Assembly: GCA_903896675.1 (NCBI GenBank)
Contig: CAITYU010000289.1
Location: 1 to 41,804 of the forward strand
Source: an uncultured Planctomycetaceae bacterium
GTDB lineage: Bacteria > Planctomycetota > Planctomycetia > Planctomycetales > Planctomycetaceae
Direction of reading: 5' to 3'
DNA length: 41,804 nucleotides
Shown: positions 1,712 through 40,676 of the stretch, piece after piece
Position numbering within the stretch: the stretch's first letter is position 1
Layout: each line of letters begins with the position of its first letter
Notes under the pieces: generated by a model
What the model was told of the DNA's origin: nothing
Seen by the model: only the letters and a program-made list of their open reading frames with translations
Databases searched by the model: none
Position numbers and translations under genes: made by a program

Positions 1712-1754
1712 CGCTTCTTCCCGACTGTGCGAGTCGCCCTCGAAATACTCAAAT

Positions 1755-2765: not shown

Positions 2766-2772
2766 ATCAGTC

Positions 2773-6167: not shown

Positions 6168-6205
6168 GCCGCAGGTCATCTCCTGAAGAAAATCATGCAC
6201 AGCAG

Positions 6206-6233: not shown

Positions 6234-6246
6234 CGTGCGCACAGAT

Positions 6247-7554
6247 TCAGGCCGCAGCAATCTCACGGAACGCAACCTCCGCCGCTGCCCCCGTTGACAA
6301 AATGTCCTCGTCAGTGTGAACCGCCGAAATAAACATCGCCTCAAACTGACTGCAGGGCAGATAGACCCCGCGATTCAGCAGTCCGTGAAACCAGGTTGCA
6401 AACCGAGCAGTATCAGAGCGGGATGCAGACTCGAGGTCCGTCACCGGACGGTCCGTCATGAACACCGTCAGCATACTGCCCACACGGTTGATGCTGACCG
6501 GTATGCCGGCTCGCCCCGCAGCCGCGCGAAACTGACTCTCCAGAGCCAGTCCCAACTGCTCCAGCCTCGCGTAGGGACTGCTGCTGCGAATCAATTCCAG
6601 CATCGCCCTTCCAGCAGCCATCGCCACTGGATTACCCGACAATGTCCCCGCCTGATACACCCGCCCGGCAGGTGACACGCACTTCATGATGTCGGCCCGC
6701 CCGCCATAAGCACCAACCGGCATTCCGGCTCCCAGAATCTTCCCCAGAGTCGTCATGTCCGGCGTTATTCCGAACAACTCCTGTGCCCCCCCGGCTGCCA
6801 GACGAAAACCCGTCATCACCTCATCAAAAATCAGCACCGTGCCATGGTGATGACACAACCGACGCAACTCACCCAGAAACTCACTCGTCGGAATCACACA
6901 CCCCATGTTTCCAACCACAGGCTCAATGATGACAGCCGCCAGCTGATCACCGTTGACGGCAAACGCCTGCCGCAACTTCTCCGTGTCGTTGTATGGCAAC
7001 ACCAGAGTATCCGCAGTGGCACCGGCCGGAACACCGGGACTGGATGGACATCCCAAAGTCAGAGCACCGCTGCCGGCCGCCACCAGCAGACTATCAACAT
7101 GTCCGTGATAACAGCCGGCAAACTTGATGATGCCGCTGCGGCCCGTGAAACCACGAGCCACACGGATCGCCGACATCGTCGCCTCCGTCCCGGAATTCAC
7201 CATCCGCACCATCTCAATCGATGGTACCATGGAAACCACAAGTTCCGCCAGAGCCCCCTCGGCTGCGGTTGGCGCCCCAAAACTGGTTCCGATCTCCAGC
7301 GCCCCCTGAATGGACTGCAGTATCGCCGGATGCCGATGACCAAACAGATGCGGTCCCCACGAACCGATATAGTCAATAAAACGATTCCCGTCCACATCCG
7401 TCAGGTACGCAGCGTCGCCCCGACGCATGAACGGTGGAGTTCCTCCCACCGCACCAAAGGCCCGCGCCGGACTGTTCACGCCTCCCGGAATCAGCTCCGC
7501 AGCACGCCGAAATAAACGCTCACTCTCCGCACGCAATGACGTATCCACAGACAT
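6247..7554 (-). CDS. hemL: Glutamate-1-semialdehyde 2,1-aminomutase
   Basis: HemL is a PLP enzyme that converts glutamate-1-semialdehyde to 5-aminolevulinate in C5-route tetrapyrrole synthesis. The 435-residue protein shows the family start LIPGGVNSPARAF, the gating-loop region SSPGVPAG, IFDEVMTGFR (PLP-ring Asp) and TTLGKILGAGMP with Schiff-base lysine at about residue 272. The length is normal. A GTG nine bases further upstream (7563) is possible, but the ATG at 7554 has AAGAG eight bases ahead and begins MSVDTSLRAES. It lies 36 bases downstream of the LRR lipoprotein gene and may be co-transcribed. The end is convergent with the terminator of the preceding plus-strand gene. Confidence 0.96.
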   Translation of the reverse strand: MSVDTSLRAESERLFRRAAELIPGGVNSPARAFGAVGGTPPFMRRGDAAYLTDVDGNRFIDYIGSWGPHLFGHRHPAILQSIQGALEIGTSFGAPTAAEGALAELVVSMVPSIEMVRMVNSGTEATMSAIRVARGFTGRSGIIKFAGCYHGHVDSLLVAAGSGALTLGCPSSPGVPAGATADTLVLPYNDTEKLRQAFAVNGDQLAAVIIEPVVGNMGCVIPTSEFLGELRRLCHHHGTVLIFDEVMTGFRLAAGGAQELFGITPDMTTLGKILGAGMPVGAYGGRADIMKCVSPAGRVYQAGTLSGNPVAMAAGRAMLELIRSSSPYARLEQLGLALESQFRAAAGRAGIPVSINRVGSMLTVFMTDRPVTDLESASRSDTARFATWFHGLLNRGVYLPCSQFEAMFISAVHTDEDILSTGAAAEVAFREIAAA

Positions 7555-7590
7555 TTCAGACACTCTTTCAGCAGCATAGCTGCCCAGGAT

Positions 7591-8883
7591 TCAGTTGACC
7601 TTCAGTTCCAGGCCGGGACGAGCAGCTCGCAGCTTTGCGATCGTTTCCTCAGTCGCCCCAAGATTCGATATGTCCAGATACTTCAGCGCCGGCAGTTGCC
7701 CCAGCTGCACCAGCCCCGCATCGTCAAGCTGAGTACCACCCAGATGCAGCCGCTCCAGCTTCTGCAGTTTCAACAGCACTGGTACAGACTCCGAAGTAAT
7801 CCGAGTCGCCTCCAGATTCAGCTCAGTCAGATTCACCAGCGACCCCAAAGTCGCAAATGACTCGTCCCGGACCTTCTTGATCTCTCGCAGTTCCAGATAT
7901 GTCAGCCCAGTCAGCGCCGCCAGCTCCGGAATCCCGTCGGCCGTCACCAGACGACACTCACTGATATCCAGAAACGCCAGCTTCGTCAGAGATTTCAAAG
8001 CCTTCAGACCCTCATCGTCCAGAGACGTCTCACGAAGCTCCAGTCGCGTCAGCTCGCGACACTCCGCCAGCTTTGCAACACCCGCTCCCGTCACGTCCGC
8101 AAGGCGACAGCCAAAACGCCTGAGATTTTTCAGCCTGCCAATATCCTGCAACCCGATGTCCGTCAGACGTGTCGCCTCCATCTGCAGCTGTTCCAGTGTC
8201 ACCATTCCCGTGATCACAGGCATCGCCGCATCACTGATCTCCGTGTTGTAGTTCAGGTTCAGCGACTTCAGCGGCAACTTCGCCAGCGAAGTCAGACAGG
8301 CATCCGTCGCTTTCGACTTCTCCAGCTGAACGTCAACCAGAGACTGCATGCCCTCCAGCTGCGCAATCCCGGCGTCCGTCGCATTCGTGTTCCGCAGATC
8401 AATTGCCCGCAGTTTTTTCAGCGATTTGACGAACTTCAGACCGTCATCCGTAAAACCCGAACGCCGCAGAATCAATGCCTCCAGATTCGGCAGCCCCGAA
8501 GCAATCTTCAGTGTACCGTCACCAAGGCTGGAAGCGTCCGTCAGATCCAGTCGCTTCAGACTCGTCAGTGCAGCCAGAGGCGGCATTGCCTCGTCCTTCA
8601 GCCCCGGTCCACCCAGTCGCAGCACCGTCACACTGCGGAGCCCCGCCAGACTCTGCAGCGCTGCAGCAACATCCTGGTCGGCCGAAACGGACACCTCCGC
8701 CACATTGCCCGCAGCATTCTTCTTCAGACTGAAGCCCGCCTGCTCCAGTGCCGCCACCGCTGCCGGATCATCCGCCGATACGGTCGCTGCACCACCGGCA
8801 GAACCTGAGCCACCCGGAGTCCCGGAATTGCAGGATGCAGTCAGCAACAGCAACAGAACTGAAAACAGACGCAGATTGTTCAT
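7591..8883 (-). CDS. Leucine-rich-repeat lipoprotein
   Basis: From the ATG at 8881-8883 the 430-residue product begins MNNLRLFSVLLLLLTASCNSG, a lipoprotein signal with lipobox LTASC (lipidated Cys18). A Gly/Ser/Ala linker follows. From about residue 75 to the end the protein is a run of roughly 14 leucine-rich repeats of about 24 residues with the pattern LxxLxxLxLxxTxIxDxGL, the bacterial LRR type common in planctomycetes. The frame is open 17 codons further upstream, but that would spoil the signal peptide. It is probably a periplasmic or outer-surface scaffold that binds protein partners. It lies upstream of hemL by 36 bases; no functional link is evident. Confidence 0.85.
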   Translation of the reverse strand: MNNLRLFSVLLLLLTASCNSGTPGGSGSAGGAATVSADDPAAVAALEQAGFSLKKNAAGNVAEVSVSADQDVAAALQSLAGLRSVTVLRLGGPGLKDEAMPPLAALTSLKRLDLTDASSLGDGTLKIASGLPNLEALILRRSGFTDDGLKFVKSLKKLRAIDLRNTNATDAGIAQLEGMQSLVDVQLEKSKATDACLTSLAKLPLKSLNLNYNTEISDAAMPVITGMVTLEQLQMEATRLTDIGLQDIGRLKNLRRFGCRLADVTGAGVAKLAECRELTRLELRETSLDDEGLKALKSLTKLAFLDISECRLVTADGIPELAALTGLTYLELREIKKVRDESFATLGSLVNLTELNLEATRITSESVPVLLKLQKLERLHLGGTQLDDAGLVQLGQLPALKYLDISNLGATEETIAKLRAARPGLELKVN

Positions 8884-8977
8884 GGTATGGACCGCAAGAC
8901 TGTCACTACCCGGCAGACAGCAGATCCCTGCCAACGCTTTGCAGGCTGCCCCTCCACAGTGTAAAGCTCGTTACAGG

Positions 8978-8987
8978 TTGCATGCAA
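8978..8987. promoter_or_regulatory. Ten-base palindrome between divergent genes
   Basis: TTGCATGCAA is a perfect palindrome in the 280-base region between the divergent LRR lipoprotein and the cytochrome-tailed protein, about 95 and 177 bases from the two starts. It could be an operator half or a chance palindrome. I found no clear -35/-10 pair around it. Confidence 0.2.
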
Positions 8988-9163
8988 TCAGACCGACGGC
9001 AGTTCCCGCGAGTCCTGCTGGAGTCTCGAAAGGGAAAGTCCCGGCAGACACCGATAACCCCGCCACACACCACCCCCTTCCCGATTGCTTCAGCCGGATG
9101 TTTCCGTCACCATATTCACGTTAGCCAGACCTCCCAATTCAAATCCAATCCGGAGCCCCCGGT

Positions 9164-12100
9164 ATGGCCCGCCTGTTCTCCCGCTGCCTGCTGCTGCTCA
9201 TCAGCCTCTGCCTGCCACCACTCGCTGCTGCTGACGAACGCATCCCCCATGCTCAGGATCGTCCTCCCGGCCCGGCTCTCTCACCACAGGACGCCATCGC
9301 ACGCATGACCGTCCCACCCGGGTTCTCCGTCGAACTCATCGCCGCCGAACCCGATGTTGTCAATCCCACCGCCATGACCATCGATGAACGAGGTCGCTAC
9401 TGGATCACGGAATCCCTCGAATATCCACGCCGCTCACCCGGCCCCGGCAGGGACCGAGTCCGAATCCTCGAAGATACCGACGGAGACGGCCGCACCGATC
9501 ACACCACAGTCTTCATGGAAGGTCTCAACATCCCCAGCGGTATCGCCGTCGGACACGGTGGGGTCTGGGTGGCCAATGCCCCGGACCTGCTCTTCGTCCA
9601 GGACACCGACGGCGACGGAAAAGCTGACAGACAGGAGGTCGTTGTCACAGGCTTCGGTCGAGACGATACACATGAACTTCCGAATTCACTCACCTGGGGC
9701 CCCGACGGCTGGCTCTATGGCCTCAATGGAGTCTTCAATCCTTCACACATCCGCTACGGACCCTCAAACCCCAATTTCAAAGCCGACAGCGAAGGCTGGA
9801 AATTCACCTGCGCGATGTTCCGCATCCATCCGGCCACTCGCGAATTCCAGGTATTCTGCGAAGGCACCAGCAACCCCTGGGGTATCGCCTTCGATGATGC
9901 CGGTGAAGCCTTCGTCAGTGCCTGCGTCATCGATCACCTGTGGCACCTCACTGAAACCGGCTACTACCACCGTCAGGGGGGCCCCTATCCGCCCTTCACA
10001 TGGAAAATCGAAAGTATCGTCCAGCACCGACATCAGAAAGCCGCCTACTGCGGAATCCACTGGTACGACAGTGATGCCTACCCTGAACCCTTCCGCCGCA
10101 GACTCTATATGGGGAATATTCACGGAGGCTGCATCAACAGTGATCGGGTGATACCTCAGGGAGCAACCTACCGCGGCGAACCCGAAAATGACCTGCTCAC
10201 CGCCAACGACGCGTGGTTCATGCCCATTGTCCAGAAAACCGGACCGGACGGCTGCCTCTGTATTCTCGACTGGTACGATCGATATCACTGCTATCAGGAT
10301 GCCAATCGGGACCCCGGCGGAATCGATCGCCTCCGCGGTCGACTGTACCGCATTCGCTATCAGAACACTCCTCACTCCCGCCCATTCAACCTCGCCGGGG
10401 AAACGGATCAGTCCCTTATTGACATGCTCAGCAGTCCCAACGGCTATCGCCGCGATACCGCTCAGCGACTCCTCTCGGAACGACTCCTGCAGAACCGCTC
10501 CCCGCAGATGAACCACAGCCTGCTGCAACTCGTTACCAGCAGCTCGAACACGGAAACACGGCTCCGCAGCCTCGGAATCCTCAGCGTTGCCGGAATGCTC
10601 GAGGAACCCCTGCTGCTGACTCTGCTGCAGGATTCCGAGCCGATCGTTCGTGCTCGCACCCTGCGTGCCGCTCGCGAACTCAACACACCGTCCCCCGCAC
10701 TGCTGACAGCCGCTCTCGAACGATCCGCAGATGCCGCACACTCCGTGCGACTGCAGACCGTTATCACCGCCGCCCGACAACCCGCCACTGTTGCCATGCC
10801 GGTCCTCGTCAAAGTGCTCGCTCTGGCCGGTGAAGACCCCCTCACGCCACGCATCGTCTGGAAACATCTGCAGCCCCTGCTGGAACAACAGGCTGCCCTG
10901 TTCGTAACCGAGGTTCGCCGACAGACACCAGCCGACACTGGCATACCCGCCTCCGTCCTGCAACTGCTGCCACGAATTGCCGAACGAGTCCTTGCGGCCG
11001 CCACACCCGATAACGCGTCTCTCGCTGCTCTGCTCGACCTGCTGCTCCTCGATCCCACCTCATCCACCGCCGCGGATCAGTGCCTGCAACTGCTGCTCAG
11101 CCGACTGCGATCAGGAGAAACCAGTGCAGCAGCAGCCGATAACCTGGGACAACTGCTGCGACAGCCACTGCAGAAAGCCGTGACGGAAAACAGCCCCGTT
11201 GCAGTCTCGGCCCTGCAGTTGCTCGTCGCCACGCAGTCCGCAGAAGCCACCAGACTCGCTCTGCAGAAGTTTCAGGAATCCACAAACCCGGAACTCCGGC
11301 TGCAACTTCTGGATGCATTCATCATCGCACGCACCCCTGATGCTGAAAAACTCGCCCGCACTCTGATTGAATCTGACCTCCAGCCCGAACCGCTTCGCAA
11401 AATCATCCTCGCCACCGGTCGCATCCGCACACCAGCCGCCTCCCGATTGCTGCTGGAAAAAACCCCGACACTGCCGCCCGATGTTCGACCCGCAGCCATC
11501 GAAATACTCACTGATCAACTGCCGTCCTCCATCCAGCTCATGCAACTCGTCCGCGATGGCAAAGTCGAGCCCGGCAATATCAACTCCAACCAGGCCCGAA
11601 AAATGCTGCTGTTCAAAGACCAGAATCTCAATGACCTCGTCACCAGACACTGGGGCTCCGTCAGAACAGAACGCGACCCCGCCAGACAGGAACTCATCGC
11701 TCGCATGCGCAACGAACTCCGCATCGCCCGCGGAAACCCCGTCGCCGGCAAAGCCGTCTTCGCAAAAGTCTGCGGGCAGTGCCACAAAATGTACGGCGAA
11801 GGCGCCGATGTCGGACCGGATATCACTCGCAACGGTCGAGCCTCCTTCGAACAACTGCTCTCCAATGTCTTTGACCCCAGCCTCGTAATCGGCGCCGCCT
11901 ACCAGGCACAAACCATCGTCACCCGCGACGGACAGATCATCACCGGACTGCCCGTGGAAGACAATGCCCAGCGAGTCGTCCTGAAAATTCAGGGAAATCG
12001 CACTGAAACCATCCCACGAAACGACATCGAACAGCAGGTCATCAGCCCGCTCTCACTCATGCCCGAAGGACTCGAAAAACAACTCCAGCCGTCCGAACTG

Positions 12101-12625
12101 CACGACCTGTTCGCATGGCTGACACTCGATAAACCACCCACCGACCCCAACGCAAAATTCCTCCCCGGAGCACGCATCGAACCAGGAACAGCCCGCAAAA
12201 TTTCCAATTACCCCCAACTCGTCGAACAACTGCTGCCCGGATTCTCCGTGGAAGCTTCCGGAGAAGGCGGTATCGAACTGCTCGAAAATCACCTCGGACG
12301 GCCAGCCCTCAGAACTCACCCACCCGACAAAAATCGCCCCTGCCGATTAACAGCCAGCTTGCAGATGCCAGTCGCCGCAAAAATCAAACTCCGCATCTCC
12401 GTCGCCTCACACGAACAGGGTGACTGGCAACTCGATGTCAAAATCAATGGACTGCAAAGACACAAATCCATCATCCGCCCAACTCAGAACCCACGCTGGA
12501 AAGATCTGGAAATTGACCTCTCTGACCTATCTGGACAAAAGATCAGTATAGATTTATTCAATACCCCAAATGATTGGTCCAATGAATTCGGATTCTGGAA
12601 CGCCGCAGAAGTCGTGTCCGAGTAG
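9164..12625 (+). CDS. Secreted PVC-type dehydrogenase-like protein with HEAT repeats and C-terminal heme-binding CxxCH domain
   Basis: The 1153-residue protein has a signal peptide (residues 1-23). Residues ~45-410 form a beta-propeller of the membrane-bound dehydrogenase type known from planctomycetes (start PPGFSVELIAAEPDVVNPTA), with two DTDGDG calcium-type loops near 104 and 147. Residues ~415-830 are helical HEAT-like repeats. A c-type cytochrome domain follows, with CGQCH (Cys870, Cys873, His874) and VGPDITRNGR. A beta-rich C-terminal domain from ~1030 resembles a carbohydrate-binding or NPCBM-like sandwich. Family knowledge suggests periplasmic oxidation of sugars or alcohols with electron transfer to the heme; the substrate is unknown. 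The ATG at 9164 gives the signal peptide directly. It stands alone, with 149 bases before the Rrf2 gene. Confidence 0.88.
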   Translation: MARLFSRCLLLLISLCLPPLAAADERIPHAQDRPPGPALSPQDAIARMTVPPGFSVELIAAEPDVVNPTAMTIDERGRYWITESLEYPRRSPGPGRDRVRILEDTDGDGRTDHTTVFMEGLNIPSGIAVGHGGVWVANAPDLLFVQDTDGDGKADRQEVVVTGFGRDDTHELPNSLTWGPDGWLYGLNGVFNPSHIRYGPSNPNFKADSEGWKFTCAMFRIHPATREFQVFCEGTSNPWGIAFDDAGEAFVSACVIDHLWHLTETGYYHRQGGPYPPFTWKIESIVQHRHQKAAYCGIHWYDSDAYPEPFRRRLYMGNIHGGCINSDRVIPQGATYRGEPENDLLTANDAWFMPIVQKTGPDGCLCILDWYDRYHCYQDANRDPGGIDRLRGRLYRIRYQNTPHSRPFNLAGETDQSLIDMLSSPNGYRRDTAQRLLSERLLQNRSPQMNHSLLQLVTSSSNTETRLRSLGILSVAGMLEEPLLLTLLQDSEPIVRARTLRAARELNTPSPALLTAALERSADAAHSVRLQTVITAARQPATVAMPVLVKVLALAGEDPLTPRIVWKHLQPLLEQQAALFVTEVRRQTPADTGIPASVLQLLPRIAERVLAAATPDNASLAALLDLLLLDPTSSTAADQCLQLLLSRLRSGETSAAAADNLGQLLRQPLQKAVTENSPVAVSALQLLVATQSAEATRLALQKFQESTNPELRLQLLDAFIIARTPDAEKLARTLIESDLQPEPLRKIILATGRIRTPAASRLLLEKTPTLPPDVRPAAIEILTDQLPSSIQLMQLVRDGKVEPGNINSNQARKMLLFKDQNLNDLVTRHWGSVRTERDPARQELIARMRNELRIARGNPVAGKAVFAKVCGQCHKMYGEGADVGPDITRNGRASFEQLLSNVFDPSLVIGAAYQAQTIVTRDGQIITGLPVEDNAQRVVLKIQGNRTETIPRNDIEQQVISPLSLMPEGLEKQLQPSELHDLFAWLTLDKPPTDPNAKFLPGARIEPGTARKISNYPQLVEQLLPGFSVEASGEGGIELLENHLGRPALRTHPPDKNRPCRLTASLQMPVAAKIKLRISVASHEQGDWQLDVKINGLQRHKSIIRPTQNPRWKDLEIDLSDLSGQKISIDLFNTPNDWSNEFGFWNAAEVVSE

Positions 12626-31599: not shown

Positions 31600-31672
31600 G
31601 GGGCGGTAGCCAAGTGGCTAAGGCAACGGATTGCAAATCCGTCACGCGAGGGTTCGACTCCCTCTCGCCCCT
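31600..31672 (+). tRNA. tRNA-Cys (anticodon GCA)
   Basis: The 73-base tRNA has an acceptor stem GGGGCGG/TCGCCCC (one G-U pair), a D arm GCCAAGTGGCTAAGGC and an anticodon stem ACGGA/TCCGT enclosing TTGCAAA with anticodon GCA. The variable loop is CACGC and the T arm is GAGGG-TTCGACT-CCCTC. The discriminator base is U73, an identity element of tRNA-Cys. The CCA tail is not encoded. Confidence 0.96.
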
Positions 31673-31677
31673 CTTTC

Positions 31678-31722
31678 AAAAAACCTTTCCAGTTGGCCCC
31701 ACAGCCCTGAGAAAGGTTTTTT
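31678..31722 (+). terminator. Hairpin terminator after tRNA-Cys, overlapping the next gene's upstream region
   Basis: AAAAAACCTTTC (31678-31689) pairs perfectly with GAAAGGTTTTTT (31711-31722) across a 21-base loop. The T-run continues to 31723, directly before the ATG at 31724. It begins six bases past the tRNA. The 3' arm contains GAAAGG, which also looks like a ribosome-binding site for that ATG. Confidence 0.75.
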
Positions 31723-31723
31723 T

Positions 31724-33295
31724 ATGCGCCGCTTTCTGCACGCATCCTGGAACCGGAACCCGCTGATGCCCACCTGCAAACACCCCACAGCCTCCCCTCG
31801 GCAACTCCTGCAATACGTACTGCGGACAACCTGCTGCTGCATACTACTGGCCTCCATCACGCCACAAGCCTCCGCACAAACACAGCGCCTTGAACTCGGA
31901 AGACGACTTAAACGCTTCGAAATTGCCTGGGAACAGGCCTCCCCCAAACAACGCTCTGAATCCATCAAACCCCTGAAACAGGCCGTAAACAGCTTTTTCA
32001 GCCTCCAACTGTCTCAGGCCGGACAGCAACTGGACAATGCATGGTTCGCTGTCCGCAGCACCGATCCTCCGTCGCAGACCGAAAAAACCGCCATCGCCCA
32101 CTCTCTCTCCGCCCTGCCCCTCTGCGCTGTGCCCGAAACAGCCGAACTCAGACTGCATCTCACCCCCTTCTACCCGCTGGAATCCACACTCCCGGAGAAC
32201 ACTCTGCTGCAACTCGTACTCAAAAACAGATCCTCAGAAACTCTCGCCGAATTCCAGTGCCCGGCCTCCACTGCCTCGGCCGGCACCACATGGAACACCG
32301 GCCCCCTGCCCGCCGGTGATCACCACATTGAAGCCACACTCCACGCCGAAAATCAGACCATTCGACTCCCCGGCATCAGCATCAGTCGCATCCCGGAACT
32401 TCCGCAACGACTTGAAAAACTCAAACAGGTTGCCGAAACACTCCGTCAGCAGGCCCTGTCAGCCTCTCCTGCCCCCGACCTGCCCCCGGCCACACTCGCC
32501 GCCGCCGCCACTGCACGCAGCGAAGTCGCTCTGCTGACAGCCGCCAGTGAAGGTCGCTCCACCGAGGCCGACTTCCCCCTGCAGGACAGACTCCTGATCG
32601 CCGAACAGCTGGCGGCCAGCCCCAGGAACGCCGCCGAAATCATCGCACGGCACAAATCCCCACAGGACCTCTGGCTCACTCTCGCAAAAGGCAGAAAATC
32701 CGCCCCCGTCCGCCTCAGACTGCCCGCTGATGCCACTGCACGGCCAAAACTTCCCGTGCTGTTCGTCTTCCACGGTGCCGGTGGCAGCGAAAACATGTTC
32801 TTCGAAACCTACGGCGCCGGACGCACCATCAGCGAAGCCAGCAAACGCGGCTGGCTCGTCGTAGCCCCCGGCCAGGGATTGCTCGGACTGTCGCTTTCAG
32901 TTGCCGATATGCTCGATAACCTCGAACACTTCACCACAATTGATCGCAGTCAGGTTATGCTGCTGGGACATTCCATGGGTGCTGCCCAGGTCATGAGACA
33001 GATGCAGCAGGACCCCGCCTGTGCCCGCGCCGCAGCAGCACTCGGAGGTGGCGGACGCATGACAACAACTGCTGCTGCCACTCTCACACCCGTACGCTGG
33101 TATGTCGCCGCCGGAACCGAAGACTTCGGGCGCGCCGGAGCCATGCAGTTGCACCGCAGCCTCAGCAACGCCGGTGTCACCAGCGAATATCACGACTTCC
33201 CGAACGTCGAACACCTCGTCATTGTGCAGGCCGCCACCACCGACGTCTTCCGCTTCTTCGATCAGTCACTCACTGACGCAGACTCCGCCAGATAA
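31724..33295 (+). CDS. Secreted alpha/beta hydrolase (esterase/depolymerase-like)
   Basis: The 523-residue protein has an N-terminal signal (hydrophobic core CCCILLASI, cleavage near QASAQ). A helical/beta N-terminal half of unknown fold (~50-330) follows, then an alpha/beta hydrolase domain: VLFVFHGAGGSENM (oxyanion region), nucleophile Ser417 in LLGHSMGAAQ, Asp in AGTEDFGRAG and His in NVEHLVIV. This resembles PHB-depolymerase or feruloyl-esterase-like enzymes; the substrate is unknown. The start at 31724 has GAAAGG seven bases ahead, but that lies in the tRNA terminator stem. ATG 31766 (MPTCKHP) is an equal alternative that leaves a compact signal peptide. It ends one base before the convergent coiled-coil operon. 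Confidence 0.82.
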   Translation: MRRFLHASWNRNPLMPTCKHPTASPRQLLQYVLRTTCCCILLASITPQASAQTQRLELGRRLKRFEIAWEQASPKQRSESIKPLKQAVNSFFSLQLSQAGQQLDNAWFAVRSTDPPSQTEKTAIAHSLSALPLCAVPETAELRLHLTPFYPLESTLPENTLLQLVLKNRSSETLAEFQCPASTASAGTTWNTGPLPAGDHHIEATLHAENQTIRLPGISISRIPELPQRLEKLKQVAETLRQQALSASPAPDLPPATLAAAATARSEVALLTAASEGRSTEADFPLQDRLLIAEQLAASPRNAAEIIARHKSPQDLWLTLAKGRKSAPVRLRLPADATARPKLPVLFVFHGAGGSENMFFETYGAGRTISEASKRGWLVVAPGQGLLGLSLSVADMLDNLEHFTTIDRSQVMLLGHSMGAAQVMRQMQQDPACARAAAALGGGGRMTTTAAATLTPVRWYVAAGTEDFGRAGAMQLHRSLSNAGVTSEYHDFPNVEHLVIVQAATTDVFRFFDQSLTDADSAR

Positions 33296-34213
33296 TCATC
33301 GCTGACGCTGTACCCACAACTGCTCCACAAGCTTTCGCCGCTGCTGCAGTTGATCACGCTCCACACGCAACTTATCCAGCTCCACCATCAGATACTCCGG
33401 CGAGGATTCCAACCCGCGATTCGCAGTCGCAGCCAGATACTCAGCAGACTCACCCCGAATGTCCTGCACGATCTGCCCACACTCCGACTCCAGCTGCGAC
33501 AGCCCCTGCAACTCCAGCTCCAGTTCTTCTGCACGTGATGCTGACTCCGACTCACTGTCACTGAACCCAGCCTCCTCGTAACAAGCCAGTCGCCTCAGCT
33601 CCGCCAGACGCCCGCTCGCACGGTCTCGCATCGGCCGCTGCTGCAGTTCCCGCTCCAGCTGATCACAGACCAGTGCATACAGCAGCCCACTATTCCGATA
33701 ATCTCCGACAGCCCAGCCCTCCTCCGCCAGCCTCAGTCTTTCCGCTACAGCCTCCGGAAGCGGACCAGCACCCGCAAAGCGATCGCGAAAGACCAACAGC
33801 AGCCGACTCCGCTCACGATCACACCCGGCAGATTCCCCGAAGTACAACGTCAACCGCTCACGCACCACACGCCGCAACTGCTCGTCCGGTGGCAGCTCCA
33901 CAGGAAGCTGGCCTCCCTGATACAGTGCCACCAACCAGTGATTCGACTGCGGCCACAGCTTAGACCACGCATACGGAATCTCAGAACTGCGTTTCCACGT
34001 CACAACACTCTCAATCTGAATGCTCCCTGCCAGGACGACCAGCAGAAACCAGTGCACACATGGCAGCAACCAGCAGCAGTGTCGCCATAACCGCTTCCAG
34101 TGACACTGCACTCGTCCGCCTGATACCACCGTCAGCAACCACAGCAGTAAAGCCATCAGCGCCGGCACCGTTATCAGTGTCAGCACAACCAGAGTTTTCC
34201 AGCTCACAGCCAC
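33296..34213 (-). CDS. Two-TM membrane protein with C-terminal coiled coil (third gene of coiled-coil operon)
   Basis: The 305-residue product starts with GTG (MAVSWKTL; GGAAAG ahead). It has two hydrophobic helices at about 8-30 and 44-66, a soluble region to ~200 containing LPPDEQLRRVVRERLTLYFGE, and a charged heptad-rich C-terminus (about 225-300: ASRAEELELELQGLSQLES, ELDKLRVERDQLQQRRK). No catalytic motif is visible. It is the last of three adjacent minus-strand genes with the same design: anchor plus coiled coil. It lies 36 bases behind the second gene. I do not recognise the family; an envelope scaffold is a reasonable inference. Confidence 0.7.
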   Translation of the reverse strand: MAVSWKTLVVLTLITVPALMALLLWLLTVVSGGRVQCHWKRLWRHCCWLLPCVHWFLLVVLAGSIQIESVVTWKRSSEIPYAWSKLWPQSNHWLVALYQGGQLPVELPPDEQLRRVVRERLTLYFGESAGCDRERSRLLLVFRDRFAGAGPLPEAVAERLRLAEEGWAVGDYRNSGLLYALVCDQLERELQQRPMRDRASGRLAELRRLACYEEAGFSDSESESASRAEELELELQGLSQLESECGQIVQDIRGESAEYLAATANRGLESSPEYLMVELDKLRVERDQLQQRRKLVEQLWVQRQR

Positions 34214-34249
34214 CTCGATCTTTCCGCGCTCGGTAGTTGACTGACATAT

Positions 34250-35320
34250 TCACAGTTCCCCTCGCGTTCGATCCCCGGCCACATCAGCCAGAATCTCCTG
34301 CGACAGCAGTTCGGTCGCCAGCCTCAGCAACTCACCCTCACGGTCAACCTCTCTGCGAACTTCTGCGGTGGACTGCTCCAGTTGCTGACGCTGTTGACGC
34401 TGCTGATCAACAGACTGCCGACGCCGCTGCAGCTCAGCCAGTTCAACCCGCAGTTGCTGCAATCGCTCCTGCTGCTGGCGAAACTCCAGCCGCACGCACT
34501 CCAGATGCTCAGCCTCCCGCAACCGCTGCTCACGCCGCTCCATAACTTCCTCACGCCGCTGCTGCAGTTCCACGGACTGCTCCACAATCGCCTGTTCCGC
34601 CACCACCAGCCCGCCTGCTCGTGCCAGCAGATCCTCACGCGGTACTTCCGGCGCAGACAGACGCTGCCGCAACTCCAGCGACCGCACCAGCAGACTCCCC
34701 GCAGCCAGTTTCAATTCACCAGCCGCAGCCGGCAACCGCCTCTGCTCCCACTCACCCTGCAGCTTCAGGATTTCCTCACAAACCGCATTCACCGCCTCCC
34801 GCTCAGTTCCATCAGCCAGTCCACTCAGATCCTTCTGAATCGACTGCAACTGCTCGCGCAGTATCCGCAATTCAAACGAATCCGCCGAACACAATTCGGA
34901 CAGCTGACGCAGCAGTGATGCAACCTCTGAGTCTGCACGCAATGCAGCTCCGCTGGCCAGCTTTGTCAGACACGCACGCTGATTCTGCTGCAGCTCCACC
35001 AGCCTCCGCTGCAGCGGACTGCCAGCTTCCACTGCCGACTCAATCCGCTGCAACTCTTCACCTGTAACCGACACCAGACTTCGAGTCAGTGACAGATGCT
35101 CGGCGGCTTTCACCGCCAGCCGCTGCTCAATCTGCTGCTTCCGGTGCTCCAACTGATCCAGATTCGACAGCAACGCACGCAGCATCGCCCCCGGAATCAT
35201 GGAACAACATCCCAGCACCAGCAGCCACTTAAAGATACCGCAGCCACGACCAGCTTCCGCCCCTTTCAGATTCATCGTCCGCCACTCCCGCAAATCGCTG
35301 CACCATCGGGTCAGATTCAC
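34250..35320 (-). CDS. Single-TM coiled-coil protein (second gene of coiled-coil operon)
   Basis: The 356-residue product begins with GTG at 35320, which overlaps the upstream stop in a GTGA. An in-frame ATG at 35275 is the alternative. One hydrophobic segment (about residues 29-50, FKWLLVLGCCSMIPGAML) is followed by ~280 residues of Glu/Leu/Arg/Gln-rich heptads (HRKQQIEQRLAVKAAEHLS, LQQRREEVMERREQRLREA). This is a long extended coiled coil with breaks. No enzyme motif is visible. It is probably a membrane-anchored rod that assembles with the flanking products. Confidence 0.7.
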   Translation of the reverse strand: MNLTRWCSDLREWRTMNLKGAEAGRGCGIFKWLLVLGCCSMIPGAMLRALLSNLDQLEHRKQQIEQRLAVKAAEHLSLTRSLVSVTGEELQRIESAVEAGSPLQRRLVELQQNQRACLTKLASGAALRADSEVASLLRQLSELCSADSFELRILREQLQSIQKDLSGLADGTEREAVNAVCEEILKLQGEWEQRRLPAAAGELKLAAGSLLVRSLELRQRLSAPEVPREDLLARAGGLVVAEQAIVEQSVELQQRREEVMERREQRLREAEHLECVRLEFRQQQERLQQLRVELAELQRRRQSVDQQRQQRQQLEQSTAEVRREVDREGELLRLATELLSQEILADVAGDRTRGEL

Positions 35321-36150
35321 AGCCCCGCCACCGGAGCATCAGCACTGTCTCTTCGCAGTCGCTCCAGCAGATCCTGATGCCTTGCCGCCCGACTCAACTC
35401 ACTCTCCTGACCGTCGCGCAGATTTCCCCGCGCGGCGTTTGTCGCCTCAGCCTCCGCAACCTCAGACCGCAGCCCCTCCAGGTGCCTCCCGATCTCCGCA
35501 GCAGCCGAACCACCCGTCCGACCAGCTGACTCCACCAGATCCAGTAGTTGCCGCCGACTGCCCGCCTGCTCACGCCGCAACTGCAGCGACTGCCACTCTG
35601 ACTCAGACTGCCGCAGCAGATCCTCCATCTCACCCACCACTGCTCGCCCTTCAGCCAGTACCCCCTCCAGCTCAACCAGGGCGTCCCGCTGCTCCTCCAG
35701 ACGACGCTGCTCCCGCTCCTGCTCTCCAGTCAGTCGCTCCAGCTCGTCCGCAAACTGAGTCCCCGACCATTCCCGACCGGCAAACAGCACTGTACCCTTG
35801 CCTTCCGGCACCGGCTCCGCAGCAACTGCAGCATCCCGCAGCAGCACCGAACGTCGCTCAATCGCTGATTCCAGCTCCACCGTTAACTGCTGCAGACGAG
35901 TCTGTTCCGCTGCTGCCAGATTCAGCTTCGCCCGCCGCTGCACAATCTCTTCCCGAAATTCCTCCAGATCATTCGCCAGCTTGCGATCACGCACACCCGT
36001 CGGCAACTGCTGCTCCACCTGCCGAGCAGAATGCTCAATCGTCGCACGAGCATACCCGTGGGCTCCACTGAACCCACGACCCGCCGACAGCAGAATCAGC
36101 AGCACCAGCGCACCACCCGACCAACCGACCACCCTGACTGCTCCCAACAT
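35317..36150 (-). CDS. Single-TM coiled-coil protein (first gene of coiled-coil operon)
   Basis: The 277-residue product begins MLGAVRVVGWSGGALVLLILL with a transmembrane helix at about 5-22 and AGGTG six bases before the ATG. The rest is coiled coil (about 50-120 and 150-260: LANDLEEFREEIVQRRAKL, EQEREQRRLEEQRDALVEL) with a small Gly/Trp-containing break near 130-145 (LFAGREWSGTQF). Its TGA overlaps the GTG of the next gene by four bases, so the two are translationally coupled. The DMT transporter gene lies 103 bases upstream on the same strand. I do not recognise the family. Confidence 0.7.
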   Translation of the reverse strand: MLGAVRVVGWSGGALVLLILLSAGRGFSGAHGYARATIEHSARQVEQQLPTGVRDRKLANDLEEFREEIVQRRAKLNLAAAEQTRLQQLTVELESAIERRSVLLRDAAVAAEPVPEGKGTVLFAGREWSGTQFADELERLTGEQEREQRRLEEQRDALVELEGVLAEGRAVVGEMEDLLRQSESEWQSLQLRREQAGSRRQLLDLVESAGRTGGSAAAEIGRHLEGLRSEVAEAEATNAARGNLRDGQESELSRAARHQDLLERLRRDSADAPVAGL

Positions 36151-36253: not shown

Positions 36254-37159
36254 TCAGCGACCCGCCACTGAAATGATCAGCACTCCCGCCATCAGCCCGG
36301 CAATGCACACGGCCTTGACTCGCCAGTTCTGCTCACCATACATCCGAATCCCCGCCACAAATGCAATCACCACTGAAGTCCTGCGCAGCGGCGAAATCAC
36401 AGAAATCAAAGCACCCTGCTGCTCAATCGCATGAAAATACACGAAGTCCGACACCAGCAGCAGCAGTGCAATCGCCGGTATCGACCAGCGCCACTCAAAT
36501 GGACTCGACGCCCGCCCCGCTCGCCACCACCAGGTCGCCAGCGGCAGCATCACCGGGACCAGATACACCGAAAACCACGCCTGCACCGTCGCCGATCGAA
36601 ATCCACTGTCGGCCAGTAAAAACTTGTCATACAGCGAACTGCCAGCACCCAGAATCGTCGCCATCACCATACAATACACCCAGCGATCCCGGTGAAACAC
36701 TATTCCCTCGCGACGACCAGCCAGCGAAAACGCATAAAACGAAATCAACACCACCCCCACCCCCAGCCACTGCCACATCGTCGGACGCTCACCCAGTACC
36801 AGGACCGCCGCCAGAATCGTGACAAACGGACTGCTGGCTCGAATCGGAGCCGCTATCGATACCGGCAAATGCTTCAGCGCAAAGGAAGCAAAGACCCACG
36901 AGCTGCCAGCCAGCAGGGACTTGCCAGCCAGCATCAGGTGCCCCGTCCAGGACAGATCATCAACCCGCAGCAGATCACTCGGCAGCAACCCCGGCGACAG
37001 CCTCGAAACCAGTATCACCGGCAGATACACCGACGCAGACGTCAGCACGTTGAACAACAGCACCACCGGCACCGCATTCCCGCGCAACGACTCCTTCTTC
37101 GCAATCTCATACAATCCCAGAAACACCGCCGACAGCAGACTCAGCACAATCCAGTTCAT
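36254..37159 (-). CDS. EamA-type (DMT superfamily) transporter
   Basis: The 301-residue protein has about ten hydrophobic helices in two repeats of five, the drug/metabolite transporter layout. It begins MNWIVLSLLSAVFLGLYEIAKKE. The EamA pattern in the first half is SIAAPIRASSPFVTILAAVLVLGERPT. The second repeat has AIEQQGALISVISPLRRTSVVIAF. It exports or imports a small metabolite; the substrate is unknown. ATG 37159 was chosen because the membrane helix begins there. It lies 88 bases after rho on the same strand; seven T just upstream of the start are preceded only by a weak hairpin, so termination there is unclear. Confidence 0.88.
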   Translation of the reverse strand: MNWIVLSLLSAVFLGLYEIAKKESLRGNAVPVVLLFNVLTSASVYLPVILVSRLSPGLLPSDLLRVDDLSWTGHLMLAGKSLLAGSSWVFASFALKHLPVSIAAPIRASSPFVTILAAVLVLGERPTMWQWLGVGVVLISFYAFSLAGRREGIVFHRDRWVYCMVMATILGAGSSLYDKFLLADSGFRSATVQAWFSVYLVPVMLPLATWWWRAGRASSPFEWRWSIPAIALLLLVSDFVYFHAIEQQGALISVISPLRRTSVVIAFVAGIRMYGEQNWRVKAVCIAGLMAGVLIISVAGR

Positions 37160-37247
37160 GGCCCACCCAAAAAAACAGGCCCGTCCGCCAGAAACGACGA
37201 ACAGGCCCACTTGCGTCACAAACTGCCCCGATACAGAGGCAGATGGC

Positions 37248-39752
37248 TTACAGTATCGCACGAATCTTCGTCAGAAACTCACGATTCGTCGGAAAACGAT
37301 CCATCGTCTTCGTCAACTGCTCCATCGCCTCCACAGGACTCAGACTGATCAGACTCCGCCGCAGCATCGTTATACCCTCCAGCAGATCCGCAGCCAGAAT
37401 CTTCTCCTCACGGCGAGTCCCGGAACGAGTAATGTCAATCGAAGGCCAGATGCGACGATCTGCCAGTTCACGGCTGAGCATCATTTCCATGTTGCCCGTC
37501 CCCTTGAACTCCTGGAAAATCGCCTCGTCCATCCGACTGCCGGTATCAATCAATGCCGTACCGCAAACCGTCAATGAACCACCTTCGTCAAAACGTCGAG
37601 CCTGACCGAAGAGCTTCTTCGGGACGTCCAGAGCACGAATGTCCAGACCCCCGGTCGCCGTCCGCCCCGTATTGCTGTACTTGTTGAACGCACGAGCCAG
37701 ACGAGTAATGCTGTCCAGCAGAATGAAAACGTCCTTACCCTCCTCCGCCAGACGCTTCGCCCGCTCAATAATCAACTGCGCAATCCGAATGTGACTCTCC
37801 ACATCGTTGTCCAGCGATGACGAAATCACTTCGCCCTTCACCAGACGACGCATTTCCGTCACCTCCTCAGGACGCTCGTCAATCAGCAGCACCATCAGAT
37901 GAATTTCCGGATGATTCACACTGACAGCATGAGCAATGTCCTGCAACAGCATCGTCTTGCCGGTTCGCGGAGGTGCCACCAGCAGTGCACGCTGCCCCTT
38001 ACCGATCGGACACAACAGATCCATCACCCGCATCGTCAGCGGTTTAGGACCCGTCTCCAGACGAATCTGCTCAAACGGATTGATCGCTGTCAGCTGGTCA
38101 AAATGCCGAATCCGGTCGTAGTCCTCCGGAATCAGACCGTCGATCGTCTCAACCTCCAGCAGACGCGGACCCTGATTGTGAGTCCCAGCACCCACCTCGC
38201 CACGGACCAGCACCCCTTCACGCAAACGGTACTTTTCCACCAGCGAACTGGAAACAAACGGGTTCGAATCCTCTGCAGCATAGTTCCGCTTCGGATCCCG
38301 CAGAAACCCATAACCCCGATTGTGCAGTTCCACAACTCCCTCAAAGGTTCCCTCAATCACCTCGGCGGAAGGTGAAATGCTCCGTGGCCTGCGTGGCATA
38401 CCACGATCACGATCACGATCGCGATCGCGTCCACCACGACCACCACCCATCGGCTGACCACCCCGATGAGCATTGTCGCCACGCCGATCTCGCGGCGCCC
38501 CAGGACCAATCGGACCGCCCCGACGACCACCATGCCGACGATTCCCACCATCCGGACGACCCGCATCAAAACGCGGACCGTCATTGCGATACCCCTGATC
38601 ACGAACAAAATGATCCCGCTGACCCGGATCTCCCGGACCACGTTCCAATGGACCGCGATCTCCCGGACCACGCTCACCACCGCCCCCACGACGACGACGA
38701 CGACGACGACGACGTGATGGACGACGGTCATCCCCGTCGTTCACATCATACCCGCCACCACCAGAACCCGGACCACCTTCAAAGTCACCCTCACCCTCGG
38801 GGCCCTGACCACCACGGTCCTCATCACCGTCAGAGCCGCCACCAAACAACTGGTCCGTATACCGCTCCAGATCATCCTCACGACGCGGCGGACGGGAAGC
38901 ACCCGAACCACCAAAACCATCATCACCACGACGACCACGCCCCCAGTCCTCGCGGACACCCTCAGGCCCACCCTCAGCACTCACTCGCGACTCGCCACCA
39001 TTCTCGCCAGCCGGTGGACCATCCTCGTAACGCGATGACTCATCACGACGTCGCGGGAATCGACGCCCCCCCGAATCGCCATAACTGTCCTCCCGACGGC
39101 CACCACGACGCCCACGATCACCACGCGGCTCACCACGATCACCACGCGACTCACCACGCGGCTCACCACGGTCACCACGCGGCTCACCACGGTCACCACG
39201 CGACTCACCACCATCATCGTCGACAAAATCCAGCTCATCGGTGCTGAAATATCGCATACCAGTCTGCGACTCAACGTCCGCCAGCTGCCGCTCAAAACGA
39301 TTCGATGTCCGGTCCGTCGACTCCGACCCCGCAGCGTCCACCGACTCAGACACTGAGTCCCCATCCGGACCACGCTGAGTCTCACGGCGCAGACCACGCT
39401 CCGCACGCACCCGCCGCGGACGCCGAATACCTGCATCCTCACCAGCCACCGCACCTCCCGCGTCCGACGGGCGAGCTTCATTCACAGGCTCCACCCGCTC
39501 AGGAGCCTCAGGACGCTCGACAGCCGCACGACGGACACGAGTCGGACGAGGCTCGGCGGGAACCGCAGGACCACCTGCATCCGAATCCACTCCCGAACCA
39601 AAGTCATCAGACTCCGTCGGCACAACCGCATCCTCCGCAGACGCTGCTCGCCGCGAACGCCCCGGTGCGCGGGGTTCATCTGCTGATCGGGAAGGTGATC
39701 GACGACGAGGACGCGGGCTGGTTCCGTCAGAATCGGAACTACGTGAAGGCAT
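37248..39752 (-). CDS. rho: Transcription termination factor Rho with long disordered N-terminal extension
   Basis: The 834-residue protein is twice the usual ~420. From about residue 462 it is a standard Rho: RNA-binding domain (VELHNRGYGFLRD) and ATPase with Walker A APPRTGKT (Lys599), Walker B FILLDSITRLARAFN, the Q-loop area GEVISSSLDNDVESHIRIAQ and R-loop ELADRRIWPSIDI. Rho is a hexameric helicase that ends transcripts. The first ~460 residues are Arg/Gly/Asp/Glu/Pro-rich with no domain, including GEPRGDR repeats (~181-211) and ten consecutive Arg (~346-355). Similar extensions occur in several phyla. The frame is open to 40154, but the extra part is Cys/Trp-rich and unlike the rest, so I start at the ATG 39752. 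Confidence 0.93.
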   Translation of the reverse strand: MPSRSSDSDGTSPRPRRRSPSRSADEPRAPGRSRRAASAEDAVVPTESDDFGSGVDSDAGGPAVPAEPRPTRVRRAAVERPEAPERVEPVNEARPSDAGGAVAGEDAGIRRPRRVRAERGLRRETQRGPDGDSVSESVDAAGSESTDRTSNRFERQLADVESQTGMRYFSTDELDFVDDDGGESRGDRGEPRGDRGEPRGESRGDRGEPRGDRGRRGGRREDSYGDSGGRRFPRRRDESSRYEDGPPAGENGGESRVSAEGGPEGVREDWGRGRRGDDGFGGSGASRPPRREDDLERYTDQLFGGGSDGDEDRGGQGPEGEGDFEGGPGSGGGGYDVNDGDDRRPSRRRRRRRRRGGGGERGPGDRGPLERGPGDPGQRDHFVRDQGYRNDGPRFDAGRPDGGNRRHGGRRGGPIGPGAPRDRRGDNAHRGGQPMGGGRGGRDRDRDRDRGMPRRPRSISPSAEVIEGTFEGVVELHNRGYGFLRDPKRNYAAEDSNPFVSSSLVEKYRLREGVLVRGEVGAGTHNQGPRLLEVETIDGLIPEDYDRIRHFDQLTAINPFEQIRLETGPKPLTMRVMDLLCPIGKGQRALLVAPPRTGKTMLLQDIAHAVSVNHPEIHLMVLLIDERPEEVTEMRRLVKGEVISSSLDNDVESHIRIAQLIIERAKRLAEEGKDVFILLDSITRLARAFNKYSNTGRTATGGLDIRALDVPKKLFGQARRFDEGGSLTVCGTALIDTGSRMDEAIFQEFKGTGNMEMMLSRELADRRIWPSIDITRSGTRREEKILAADLLEGITMLRRSLISLSPVEAMEQLTKTMDRFPTNREFLTKIRAIL
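38688..38714 (-). repeat. Nine-copy CGT trinucleotide tract in rho
   Basis: Nine perfect CGT codons in a row (minus strand), encoding nine arginines inside the disordered Rho extension. Uniform codon use at the DNA level suggests recent expansion by slippage. Copy changes would keep the frame. Confidence 0.8.
39119..39210 (-). repeat. In-frame 21-base tandem repeats in rho
   Basis: About four units of a 21-base repeat (plus-strand form CACGCGGCTCACCACGGTCAC, partly degenerate) encode GEPRGDR/GESRGDR. The last two units are nearly identical. This is low-complexity coding repeat, not CRISPR: there are no unique spacers. Confidence 0.8.
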
Positions 39753-40676
39753 ATCAAAAGCTCGGCAGGACAGTAATCGGAGAAACAGCAGTCTGCACAA
39801 TCGGACCGCTTCAGATAAATTGACCGGCATGGATTCCGCAGCCACACTTGCAGCCCGCGCCCGGCATACAGCCGGTACCCAACTTCCGGTTAGACCACCG
39901 CCAGCAACGCTATCGCTGATGCCCGTGGACACACTAAGGTAAGAAGTCACTGCCTGAAACACAGACAGCACAAAACACTGAACCGTTCGAGAACATAGCC
40001 CCCGAAGACACGACCCCGAAAATACGAGGCCCCAAGCAGGACTTCCACGACTGAGCCCCCCGAAACGACTTCGGAAGACCATAGCCACCTGCCCGCTCCA
40101 GAATGCCCGCTCAGGACCACCGGGTACCCGCCGCAATACTGCCACCGCAGTCACGGAATTCAGAGCACTACCAGTCGGCAGAAAATCGGAACAGCAGCCA
40201 GAACCCTACTGTAACGCCAGCAAAAACGCCAGCGTGAACAACCGCAGAAATGCAAAATTCAACCAGCAATGAACAAATTAACAACGGCAGGAAAAGCAGG
40301 CGAGCAATACCAGACAAAGAACCGACCAACATCACAGCCCACTCGGTCCCCTCTGCTGCCGTCCACTCTAGTATTAACGGATCACACCGCCGTGTCAATT
40401 CAACTCTTCCATCCAGACAAAAACATTTTCAAGAGCACACCCGCCCCGCCAAACTGCCACCAACGGTGACCCTGAGGATCAGACAGGTTGCAACGACACT
40501 CATCCACACCCCGCAACTGCAGAACACCCGATACCGCAGGTAAAATCGGCCACAAACTCCACTCACGCCCTGCAATTCTCTCCCCAGACCGGAATTTCAC
40601 TCCGCTTCCCTGCCGAAATCCCGCTCCAAACCAATCCCATCCCACACTCGACCAACGAACCGAAAGGACTCAGTCG
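39753..40676. other. Long intergenic region: rho leader and divergent promoter area
   Basis: I see no convincing gene in these 924 bases. The minus strand holds a good promoter (listed separately) that would give rho a leader of about 610 bases. An in-frame extension of rho to 40154 and a hydrophobic 76-codon frame at 40168-40398 starting with TTG look accidental. On the plus strand TAAAAT at 40541-40546 could be the -10 box of the secreted 78-residue gene, with a poor -35. Confidence 0.6.
40370..40398 (-). promoter_or_regulatory. Candidate sigma-70-type promoter for rho
   Basis: On the minus strand a perfect TTGACA (40398 to 40393) is followed after exactly 17 bases by AATACT (40375 to 40370), which matches TATAAT at four of six positions. 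Transcription would begin near 40363. This leaves a ~610-base untranslated leader before the rho start at 39752, which would suit autoregulation of rho through termination in its own leader, as known from E. coli. Confidence 0.5.

What the first reader, a model, noticed from the sequence alone, without database searches (positions are those of the whole stretch)
33296..36150. Three-gene operon of membrane-anchored coiled-coil proteins of unknown function
Three adjacent minus-strand genes each pair one or two transmembrane helices with long heptad repeats. The first two are coupled by a GTGA overlap, the third follows after 36 bases. The same architecture in tandem suggests that the products assemble into one membrane-attached structure. 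I recognise none of them, and no known secretion or division gene is adjacent. Planctomycete envelope structure is unusual, so a lineage-specific scaffold is plausible.
Basis: partly seen in the sequence, partly recalled or inferred. Interest (0 to 1): 0.6.

Follow-up and report, generated by a model that had tools for sequence, protein, structure and literature searches.

The report
Lineage-specific operon from kinase-signalling coiled-coil protein
Three small membrane-protein genes in a planctomycete form a young, lineage-specific operon; its first gene is a fast-evolving copy of a coiled-coil hairpin protein that in other planctomycetes is usually encoded with a protein kinase and a sigma factor, while the other two have no recognised relatives.

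Summary
The three minus-strand genes A (35317-36150), B (34250-35275 or -35320) and C (33296-34213) are real: dN/dS against the nearest relative is 0.19, 0.42 and 0.61. The cluster is a young insertion: the order rho-transporter-A-B-C-hydrolase occurs in the window genome and two relatives, while in three other genomes of the genus the transporter and hydrolase genes are direct neighbours. A is not unknown: it belongs to a planctomycete family of membrane-anchored antiparallel coiled-coil hairpins (model pLDDT 78.5). In 15 of 17 such loci with enough sequence an ECF-type sigma gene lies directly downstream, with a Ser/Thr kinase next in 11. A distant, much wider family lies upstream of a Ser/Thr kinase in 12 of 12 loci read. 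A, B and C have no sigma or kinase beside them, and A sits on a long branch inside the genus's kinase-associated clade. B and C have no recognised relatives, and their heptads are absent in one relative. Best reading: A was duplicated out of a kinase/sigma module, lost its partners and acquired B and C; it probably still acts as a membrane-bound interaction arm. A general planctomycete envelope scaffold is not supported.

The parts
35317..36150 (-). Gene A, 277 aa: N-terminal membrane helix, then antiparallel coiled-coil hairpin
   Evidence: ORF; family and context; model pLDDT 78.5; dN/dS 0.19
36076..36147 (-). Membrane helix of A (residues 2-25)
   Evidence: hydropathy and helix 2-25 in the model, low local confidence
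35515..36000 (-). Long hairpin of A, helices 51-111 and 130-212
   Evidence: AlphaFold2 model, ten-residue blocks mostly above pLDDT 85
35764..35793 (-). Beta-hairpin tip of A's hairpin (residues 120-129), the stretch shared with the wide family
   Evidence: model; alignments
34250..35275 (-). Gene B, probably 341 aa from the conserved ATG at 35275 (ORF open to GTG 35320, 356 aa): one membrane helix and variable helical region
   Evidence: ORF; conserved ATG; no Pfam family, NCBIfam only SMC at E 0.12; dN/dS 0.42
35180..35236 (-). Membrane helix of B (residues 14-32 from the ATG)
   Evidence: hydropathy
33296..34213 (-). Gene C, 305 aa: two membrane helices, helical region, C-terminal heptads
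   Evidence: ORF; no family; dN/dS 0.61; model poor, pLDDT 56
34136..34192 (-). First membrane helix of C (residues 8-26)
   Evidence: hydropathy
34019..34075 (-). Second membrane helix of C (residues 47-65)
   Evidence: hydropathy
36254..37261 (-). Upstream flank: DMT-type transporter gene, direct neighbour of the hydrolase gene in the empty sites
   Evidence: NCBIfam hits below their cut-offs; synteny
31631..33295 (+). Downstream flank: convergent alpha/beta-hydrolase gene; its stop codon abuts that of C
   Evidence: Pfam Abhydrolase_6; synteny

Best explanation
A-B-C is a young, uncoupled offshoot of a planctomycete kinase/sigma-factor signalling module. Shown: gene A is homologous to the membrane-anchored coiled-coil hairpin protein that usually heads operons of an ECF-type sigma factor and a Ser/Thr kinase; within this genus it forms its own long-branched clade; it stands without sigma or kinase, beside two fast-evolving membrane proteins, in an insertion between a transporter and a hydrolase gene found in only three of the genomes searched. 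Inferred: the ancestral hairpin is a membrane-bound arm that senses or relays a membrane or envelope signal to the kinase, which activates the sigma factor by phosphorylation; A keeps that arm, and B and C are new membrane partners that hold it or replace the kinase as its client, so the trio works as a small membrane complex, possibly tuning a kinase/sigma pathway encoded elsewhere.
For: Family: 24 of 170 genomes of the family have a match to the A profile, own genome and weak matches included. Context: of 20 non-window A-type loci read, 3 are cut by contig ends; of the other 17, 15 have an ECF-like sigma gene directly downstream and 11 show a kinase next; the other four have 0 to 1.4 kb left after sigma (six of the 15 sigma and three of the 11 kinase proteins were in the search models; Pfam checks). 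Distant wide family: hhalign probability 96.8, E 2e-10, against 10.5 for the reversed decoy; kinase downstream on the same strand in 12 of 12 loci read, the window's own genome included. Tree: window A with G008 and G007 (100/100), inside a genus clade (100/99) with the sigma/kinase-linked G013 copy, stem 1.65. No sigma, kinase, FGE or RT match in the window or its two syntenic loci. Empty sites. Purifying selection on all three. Phosphorylation-activated ECF sigma factors beside kinases are described in passages of PMC8103513 and PMC8999054.
Against: No experiment on any member of the A family is known to me, so the role of the hairpin even in the kinase operons is a guess. B and C resemble nothing with confidence. 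A's hairpin might work without any kinase: G008 and G007 have two A-type genes each but no A-type kinase match and only weak sigma matches, and one G008 copy stands alone; this weakens the idea of a trans partner. The membrane topology of A could not be settled. B was not searched outside the genus.
Confidence: 0.5

Rival explanations
1. Lineage-specific structural scaffold: A, B and C assemble into a membrane-attached coiled-coil structure of the envelope, with no link to signalling.
For: Membrane helices and heptads in A and B and marginally in C; genes kept in order in two relatives.
Against: A's relatives are tied to kinases and sigma factors; heptads of B and C are absent in G007; B and C not found in 15 of 18 genomes of the genus.
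Confidence: 0.22
2. Relaxed or decaying duplicate: A-B-C is a lineage-specific duplicate with little function, drifting towards loss.
For: Against G008 dN/dS rises along the operon (0.19, 0.42, 0.61; against G007, with dS above 1, it is 0.34, 0.52, 0.47) and B and C show large length changes.
Against: All three frames stay open in three genomes; dN/dS is below 1 even for C; A is as constrained as the neighbouring hydrolase (0.19 against 0.21 with G008; 0.34 against 0.26 with G007).
Confidence: 0.15
3. Membrane-remodelling protein: A is a membrane-anchored relative of PspA/VIPP1 (ESCRT-III superfamily) and polymerises on membranes, with B and C as membrane adaptors.
For: Foldseek's first PDB hit is VIPP1 (E 0.019) and several VIPP1/PspA chains are near the top; VIA-align Z 11.3 with a VIPP1 chain; PF04012 matches 2 of 12 A relatives, best 23.4 bits, and the wide-family member L125 with 29 bits, all below the cut-off of 33.9; same helix order, hairpin then two shorter helices.
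Against: Unrelated hairpins such as p85 score within 0.2 of that Z; window A itself has no PF04012 match; hhalign to planctomycete PspA 32 percent with 12 rows, 12 percent with 22 rows; the rmsd of the top match is 29.9; A has a membrane helix and a beta tip.
Confidence: 0.08
4. Trans partner: in this genome window A serves the unlinked sigma-kinase-receptor locus on contig C260, whose receptor is varied by a diversity-generating retroelement.
For: C260 carries sigma, kinase, TM/FGE receptor, bAvd and RT with no A-family match in the forward frames of its first 450 bases; the window's is the only A-type gene found in this assembly; in G013 A and sigma overlap.
Against: G008 and G007 keep window-type A-B-C without an A-type kinase match and with only weak sigma matches; the C260 contig begins 255 bases before the sigma ORF, so a missing A cannot be excluded; the assembly is 95 percent complete.
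Confidence: 0.1

Closest known systems
A-type coiled-coil hairpin protein of planctomycete sigma/kinase operons (unnamed; e.g. L017, G013)
   Same: homologous over the full length, 37 percent identity to window A, aligned membrane helix, hairpin and tip
   Different: those genes are followed by an ECF sigma and a Ser/Thr kinase; window A is followed by B and C and has a longer branch
Wide planctomycete hairpin protein upstream of a Ser/Thr kinase (unnamed; own genome G000:C404)
   Same: membrane helix, hairpin, FAG-type tip; distant homology
   Different: far diverged, in 94 of 294 phylum genomes, encoded with its kinase
Phosphorylation-activated ECF sigma factor systems (ECF43: EcfP/PknT, EcfK/PknS; ECF59, 61, 62, 217 proposed)
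   Same: the kinase/sigma pairing that A's relatives accompany
   Different: no sigma or kinase in this operon; the passages read mention no hairpin protein; to which ECF group A's neighbours belong was not tested
PspA/VIPP1/IM30 (PF04012)
   Same: coiled-coil hairpin followed by two helices; top Foldseek hit
   Different: no significant profile relation; integral membrane helix and beta tip

Membership tests
A-type kinase/sigma-associated coiled-coil hairpin family | Sequence homology over the hairpin | tested here: met
   E 1.6e-45 to 9e-21 for members in other loci with window A as query; nested in the clade
A-type kinase/sigma-associated coiled-coil hairpin family | N-terminal membrane helix and long hairpin with beta tip | tested here: met
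   (only window A was modelled; relatives by alignment)
A-type kinase/sigma-associated coiled-coil hairpin family | ECF-type sigma gene directly downstream | tested here: not met
   none in the window or in L015, L016 at E 0.01; present in 15 of 17 other loci
ECF-sigma/Ser-Thr-kinase signalling system | Kinase and sigma genes in the operon | tested here: not met
ECF-sigma/Ser-Thr-kinase signalling system | Sigma factor activated by phosphorylation | not testable with these tools
   needs biochemistry
PspA/VIPP1 (ESCRT-III superfamily) | PF04012 match over the curated cut-off | tested here: not met
   window A: 0 Pfam families; best A relative 23.4 bits against a cut-off of 33.9
PspA/VIPP1 (ESCRT-III superfamily) | PspA fold | tested here: inconclusive
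   Foldseek E 0.019 and Z 11.3, not separable from unrelated hairpins
PspA/VIPP1 (ESCRT-III superfamily) | Polymerises on membranes | not testable with these tools
   needs purified protein
Diversity-generating retroelement locus | Reverse transcriptase beside the genes | tested here: not met
   no match to the one-sequence RT model among window ORFs of 70 aa or more; RT loci are elsewhere
General planctomycete envelope scaffold | Conserved gene order across planctomycetes | tested here: not met
   B and C in 3 of 18 genus genomes; C in 4 of 99 relatives, own genome included, one of them a weak TPR-type match; B not searched beyond the genus

The most novel reading that the evidence does not exclude
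A, B and C are the detached membrane arm of a self-diversifying signalling system: A's ancestors sit in operons in which a Ser/Thr kinase and ECF sigma factor are wired to a membrane receptor whose C-terminal FGE/lectin-fold domain is, in some of them, rewritten by a diversity-generating retroelement, and in this genome the arm was moved away, sped up, and given two new fast-evolving membrane subunits, the whole acting as an envelope recognition or self/non-self device.
Probability: 0.1. Interest if true: 0.8.

Novelty: new variant of a known kind. Interest (0 to 1): 0.42.

Why it matters
It turns three orphan genes into a case with a testable ancestry, and it points to an apparently unnamed membrane hairpin protein as a frequent companion of Ser/Thr kinases and ECF sigma factors in planctomycetes, a lineage rich in both (recalled) whose signal inputs are largely unknown. 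If the hairpin is the input arm of these kinases, one protein family would open many planctomycete pathways to test. The window's operon shows that the arm can leave its kinase and evolve with new membrane partners.

Tried and rejected
Curated families for A, B, C: Pfam, NCBIfam and PADLOC gave nothing beyond weak coiled-coil matches (SMC E 0.1 for A and B, HpsJ-like E 0.4 and LmuB E 0.03 for A). Two relatives, L125 and L058, matched long PADLOC proteins (JetC E 9.5e-7, DruC E 4.6e-6; no cut-off is given there); I take these as coiled-coil matches and did not follow them. PHROGs was not run. Solved structures by sequence: four chance-level matches, E 0.03 to 0.25. A-B, B-C and C or B against the L017 receptor fragment: no homology. 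C and B against the TM protein of the wide locus: 13 percent at best, reversed controls 2 to 3 percent: rejected. B and C against the receptors of the A-type loci: best BLASTP E 0.006 (B with the L058 kinase, coiled coil), hhalign under 1 percent. C against the C260-type receptor: C shares a short stretch (AEEGWAVGDYRNSGLLYALVCDQLE); a profile of four receptors without C gave E 0.0036 (G007 C) and 0.0096 (window C), best of 500 shuffles 0.081, but I chose that stretch because it looked like C; a ten-receptor profile gave window C E 0.37 and did not list G007 C, against 0.56 for the best of 2000 shuffles, and hhalign gave 10 percent: kept as a lead only. C outside the genus: the G012 match is a TPR protein. 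Plasmids, phages and viral contigs: no match for C, none for A in viral contigs; B not tried there. No promoter-like site was found by the sigma-70 scan, which does not cover other promoters, and the terminator-like sites do not exceed shuffles. The C model is too poor to use; B was not modelled.

Rows dropped before the count: of the 30 matches I did not read the weak ones (G034, G438, G051, G511, G030, G513) nor two contig-edge fragments (G525:C195, G526:C107); L061 comes. Some of the 20 loci share a genome (L059/L060 in G342, L098/L106 in G525). The 12 wide-family loci are my choice: 11 out of the matches, plus L062.
Full report
WHAT IS THERE. A hydropathy scan gives one membrane helix in A and B and two in C; a simple heptad score exceeds all of 100 shuffles for A and B and 97 of 100 for C. 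The GTGA overlap of A and B is present, but in G008 the frame of that GTG closes after four codons and in G007 it is not B's frame (sequences). The in-frame ATG at 35275 is methionine in all three orthologues, so I take B to start there, 41 bases after A.

REAL GENES, YOUNG CLUSTER. The block rho, DMT-type transporter, A, B, C, alpha/beta-hydrolase recurs in two genomes of the same genus, G008 (A 85, B 65, C 61 percent identity) and G007 (53, 26, 36); matching contigs in the named collection are MAGs titled Planctomyces sp. isolate F1-20-MAGs055 and uncultured Planctomycetaceae bacterium LaPlata_bin-4282. Profiles of B and C find them in 3 of 18 genomes of the genus, own genome included. The transporter gene is found in 14 of 18. 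In three genomes (G016, G003, G009) transporter and hydrolase genes are neighbours with 55, 55 and 316 bases between them and no A-B-C; in the other eight fetched transporter loci no hydrolase match lies beside it, though in two of them (L054, L056) the contig ends on that side. So A-B-C is most simply a gain in the ancestor of G000, G008 and G007. Against G008, dN/dS is 0.19 (A), 0.42 (B), 0.61 (C), with 0.06 to 0.21 for three neighbours; against G007, with dS above 1, 0.34, 0.52 and 0.47: protein-coding and selected, with B and C fast. In G007 B and C are shorter and score no heptads at all, and G008 C lacks about 60 residues. The conserved element is therefore A's hairpin, not a shared coiled-coil architecture.

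GENE A BELONGS TO A FAMILY. None of the three has a Pfam match or an NCBIfam match better than E 0.09. But with window A as query, 7 of 99 genomes (own genome among the seven) match, including copies at 33 to 38 percent identity, and one fragment at 47, elsewhere in the genus and family, and a 12-row profile matches 24 of 170 genomes of the family. The AlphaFold2 model of A (pLDDT 78.5) has a membrane helix, a short helix, a long antiparallel hairpin (51-111, 130-212) with a beta-hairpin tip (120-129), then two shorter helices.

ITS RELATIVES SIT WITH SIGMA FACTORS AND KINASES. I read 20 A-type loci outside the window clade. Three end within or just after A (L019, L022, L100). Of the other 17, 15 have an ECF-like sigma gene directly downstream; the exceptions are a solitary copy in G008 (L018) and a truncated one (L107). 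A Ser/Thr kinase follows in 11; the remaining four have 0 to 1.4 kb left after sigma. Six of the sigma and three of the kinase proteins were in the search models. Pfam finds sigma domains in seven of seven tested, three of them only below the curated cut-off, and kinase domains in four of four (C260 included). In several loci the kinase is fused to, or followed by, an FGE-sulfatase-domain protein.

A WIDER FAMILY. A protein in G069 (L125, met in a PspA search) led to a much wider family with the same plan (membrane helix, hairpin, FAG tip): 94 of 294 phylum genomes, including the window's own genome (C404). Profile comparison with 22 A-type and 36 wide sequences gives probability 96.8, E 2e-10 (a one-to-one comparison), reversed decoy 10.5. 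In 12 of 12 wide loci that I chose to read, a Ser/Thr kinase lies downstream on the same strand. By eye, an FHA-like protein lies between in 8, a TM protein follows the kinase in 10 and an ECF sigma in 6; Pfam on examples gave FHA above the cut-off in L158 and below it in L160, kinase in L062, L158 and L160, sigma in L062, L160, L163 and L166. I found no description of this hairpin protein in the listings or in passages of eight papers (PMC8195603, PMC7159879, PMC8103513, PMC10936438, PMC11237479, PMC10907252, PMC8144416, PMC8999054); subscription papers and Jogler et al. 2012 (not held) were not seen, so it may be in print.

HOW THE WINDOW OPERON AROSE. In the tree, window A, G008 and G007 copies form a clade (100/100) within a genus clade (100/99) that also holds the sigma/kinase-linked G013 copy and the copies L018/L019; its stem is long, 1.65. 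No sigma, kinase, FGE or reverse-transcriptase match occurs among ORFs of the window or the two syntenic loci. Duplication, loss of the old partners, fast change and new partners is the simplest account.

MECHANISM. Reported elsewhere: ECF43 sigma factors EcfP and EcfK are activated by phosphorylation through the neighbouring kinase, and ECF59, 61, 62 and 217, with planctomycete examples, are proposed to be (passages of PMC8999054 and PMC8103513). Inferred: the hairpin protein is the membrane arm that senses or relays a signal for such kinases. In A-B-C it retains membrane anchor, hairpin and tip under purifying selection, so it probably still binds something; B and C, co-transcribed to judge by position, are the likeliest partners. 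Whether it also touches a kinase in trans is open. The own genome does hold an A-type sigma-kinase-receptor locus on C260 with no A-family match before sigma, where only 255 bases are left. But G008 and G007, which keep A-B-C, show no such kinase at E 1e-20 and only weak sigma matches, which speaks against a general trans role.

PSPA. VIPP1/PspA chains lead the Foldseek list (E 0.019) and Z is 11.3, but p85 coiled coils score within 0.2, and profile comparison gives 32 then 12 percent. I treat it as resemblance, not membership.

VERDICT. The interpretation of three unknown proteins as a planctomycete scaffold is replaced by a lineage-specific offshoot of a kinase/sigma-associated hairpin protein with two new membrane partners. 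Interest moderate: the operon itself is narrow, but the family it leads to is broad and, as far as I saw, untested.

Noticed in passing
L181 (G000:C260) 256-6364, same genome as the window: ECF-like sigma, Ser/Thr kinase, TM/coiled-coil/FGE receptor, bAvd and reverse transcriptase in a row: a diversity-generating retroelement. Template 4951-5087 against variable region 4350-4486 differs at 16 of 137 positions, all 16 at template A, ending at the receptor's stop.
   Followed up: partly
L058 (G412) 227-7327 and L103 (G512) 4872-12594: Similar layout with the A gene in place and the FGE domain fused to the kinase (bAvd matched in L058 only): template/variable repeats with 9 of 14 and 15 of 24 changes at template A.
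   Followed up: partly
L158-L168, L062: Recurrent planctomycete locus: membrane hairpin protein, often an FHA-like protein, Ser/Thr kinase, TM protein, often an ECF sigma; the two hairpin proteins scanned had no Pfam match over a cut-off.
   Followed up: partly
window 33293-33298: Stop codons of the convergent hydrolase gene and of C abut with no base between them, also in G008.
   Followed up: no
L018 (G008) 395-1279: A-type gene standing alone, no sigma or kinase match in the 2 kb downstream to the contig end, so uncoupling has happened outside the window clade too.
   Followed up: no
L181 1-255 and L019 1-397: A dispersed repeat, 91 and 82 percent identical, shared between contig starts of G000 and G007.
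   Followed up: no
window 37248-40154: Rho with a long Arg/Gly/Asp-rich N-terminal part; the ORF is 968 aa here and 878 and 879 in G008 and G007, while the last 377 residues are 97 to 99 percent identical.
   Followed up: no
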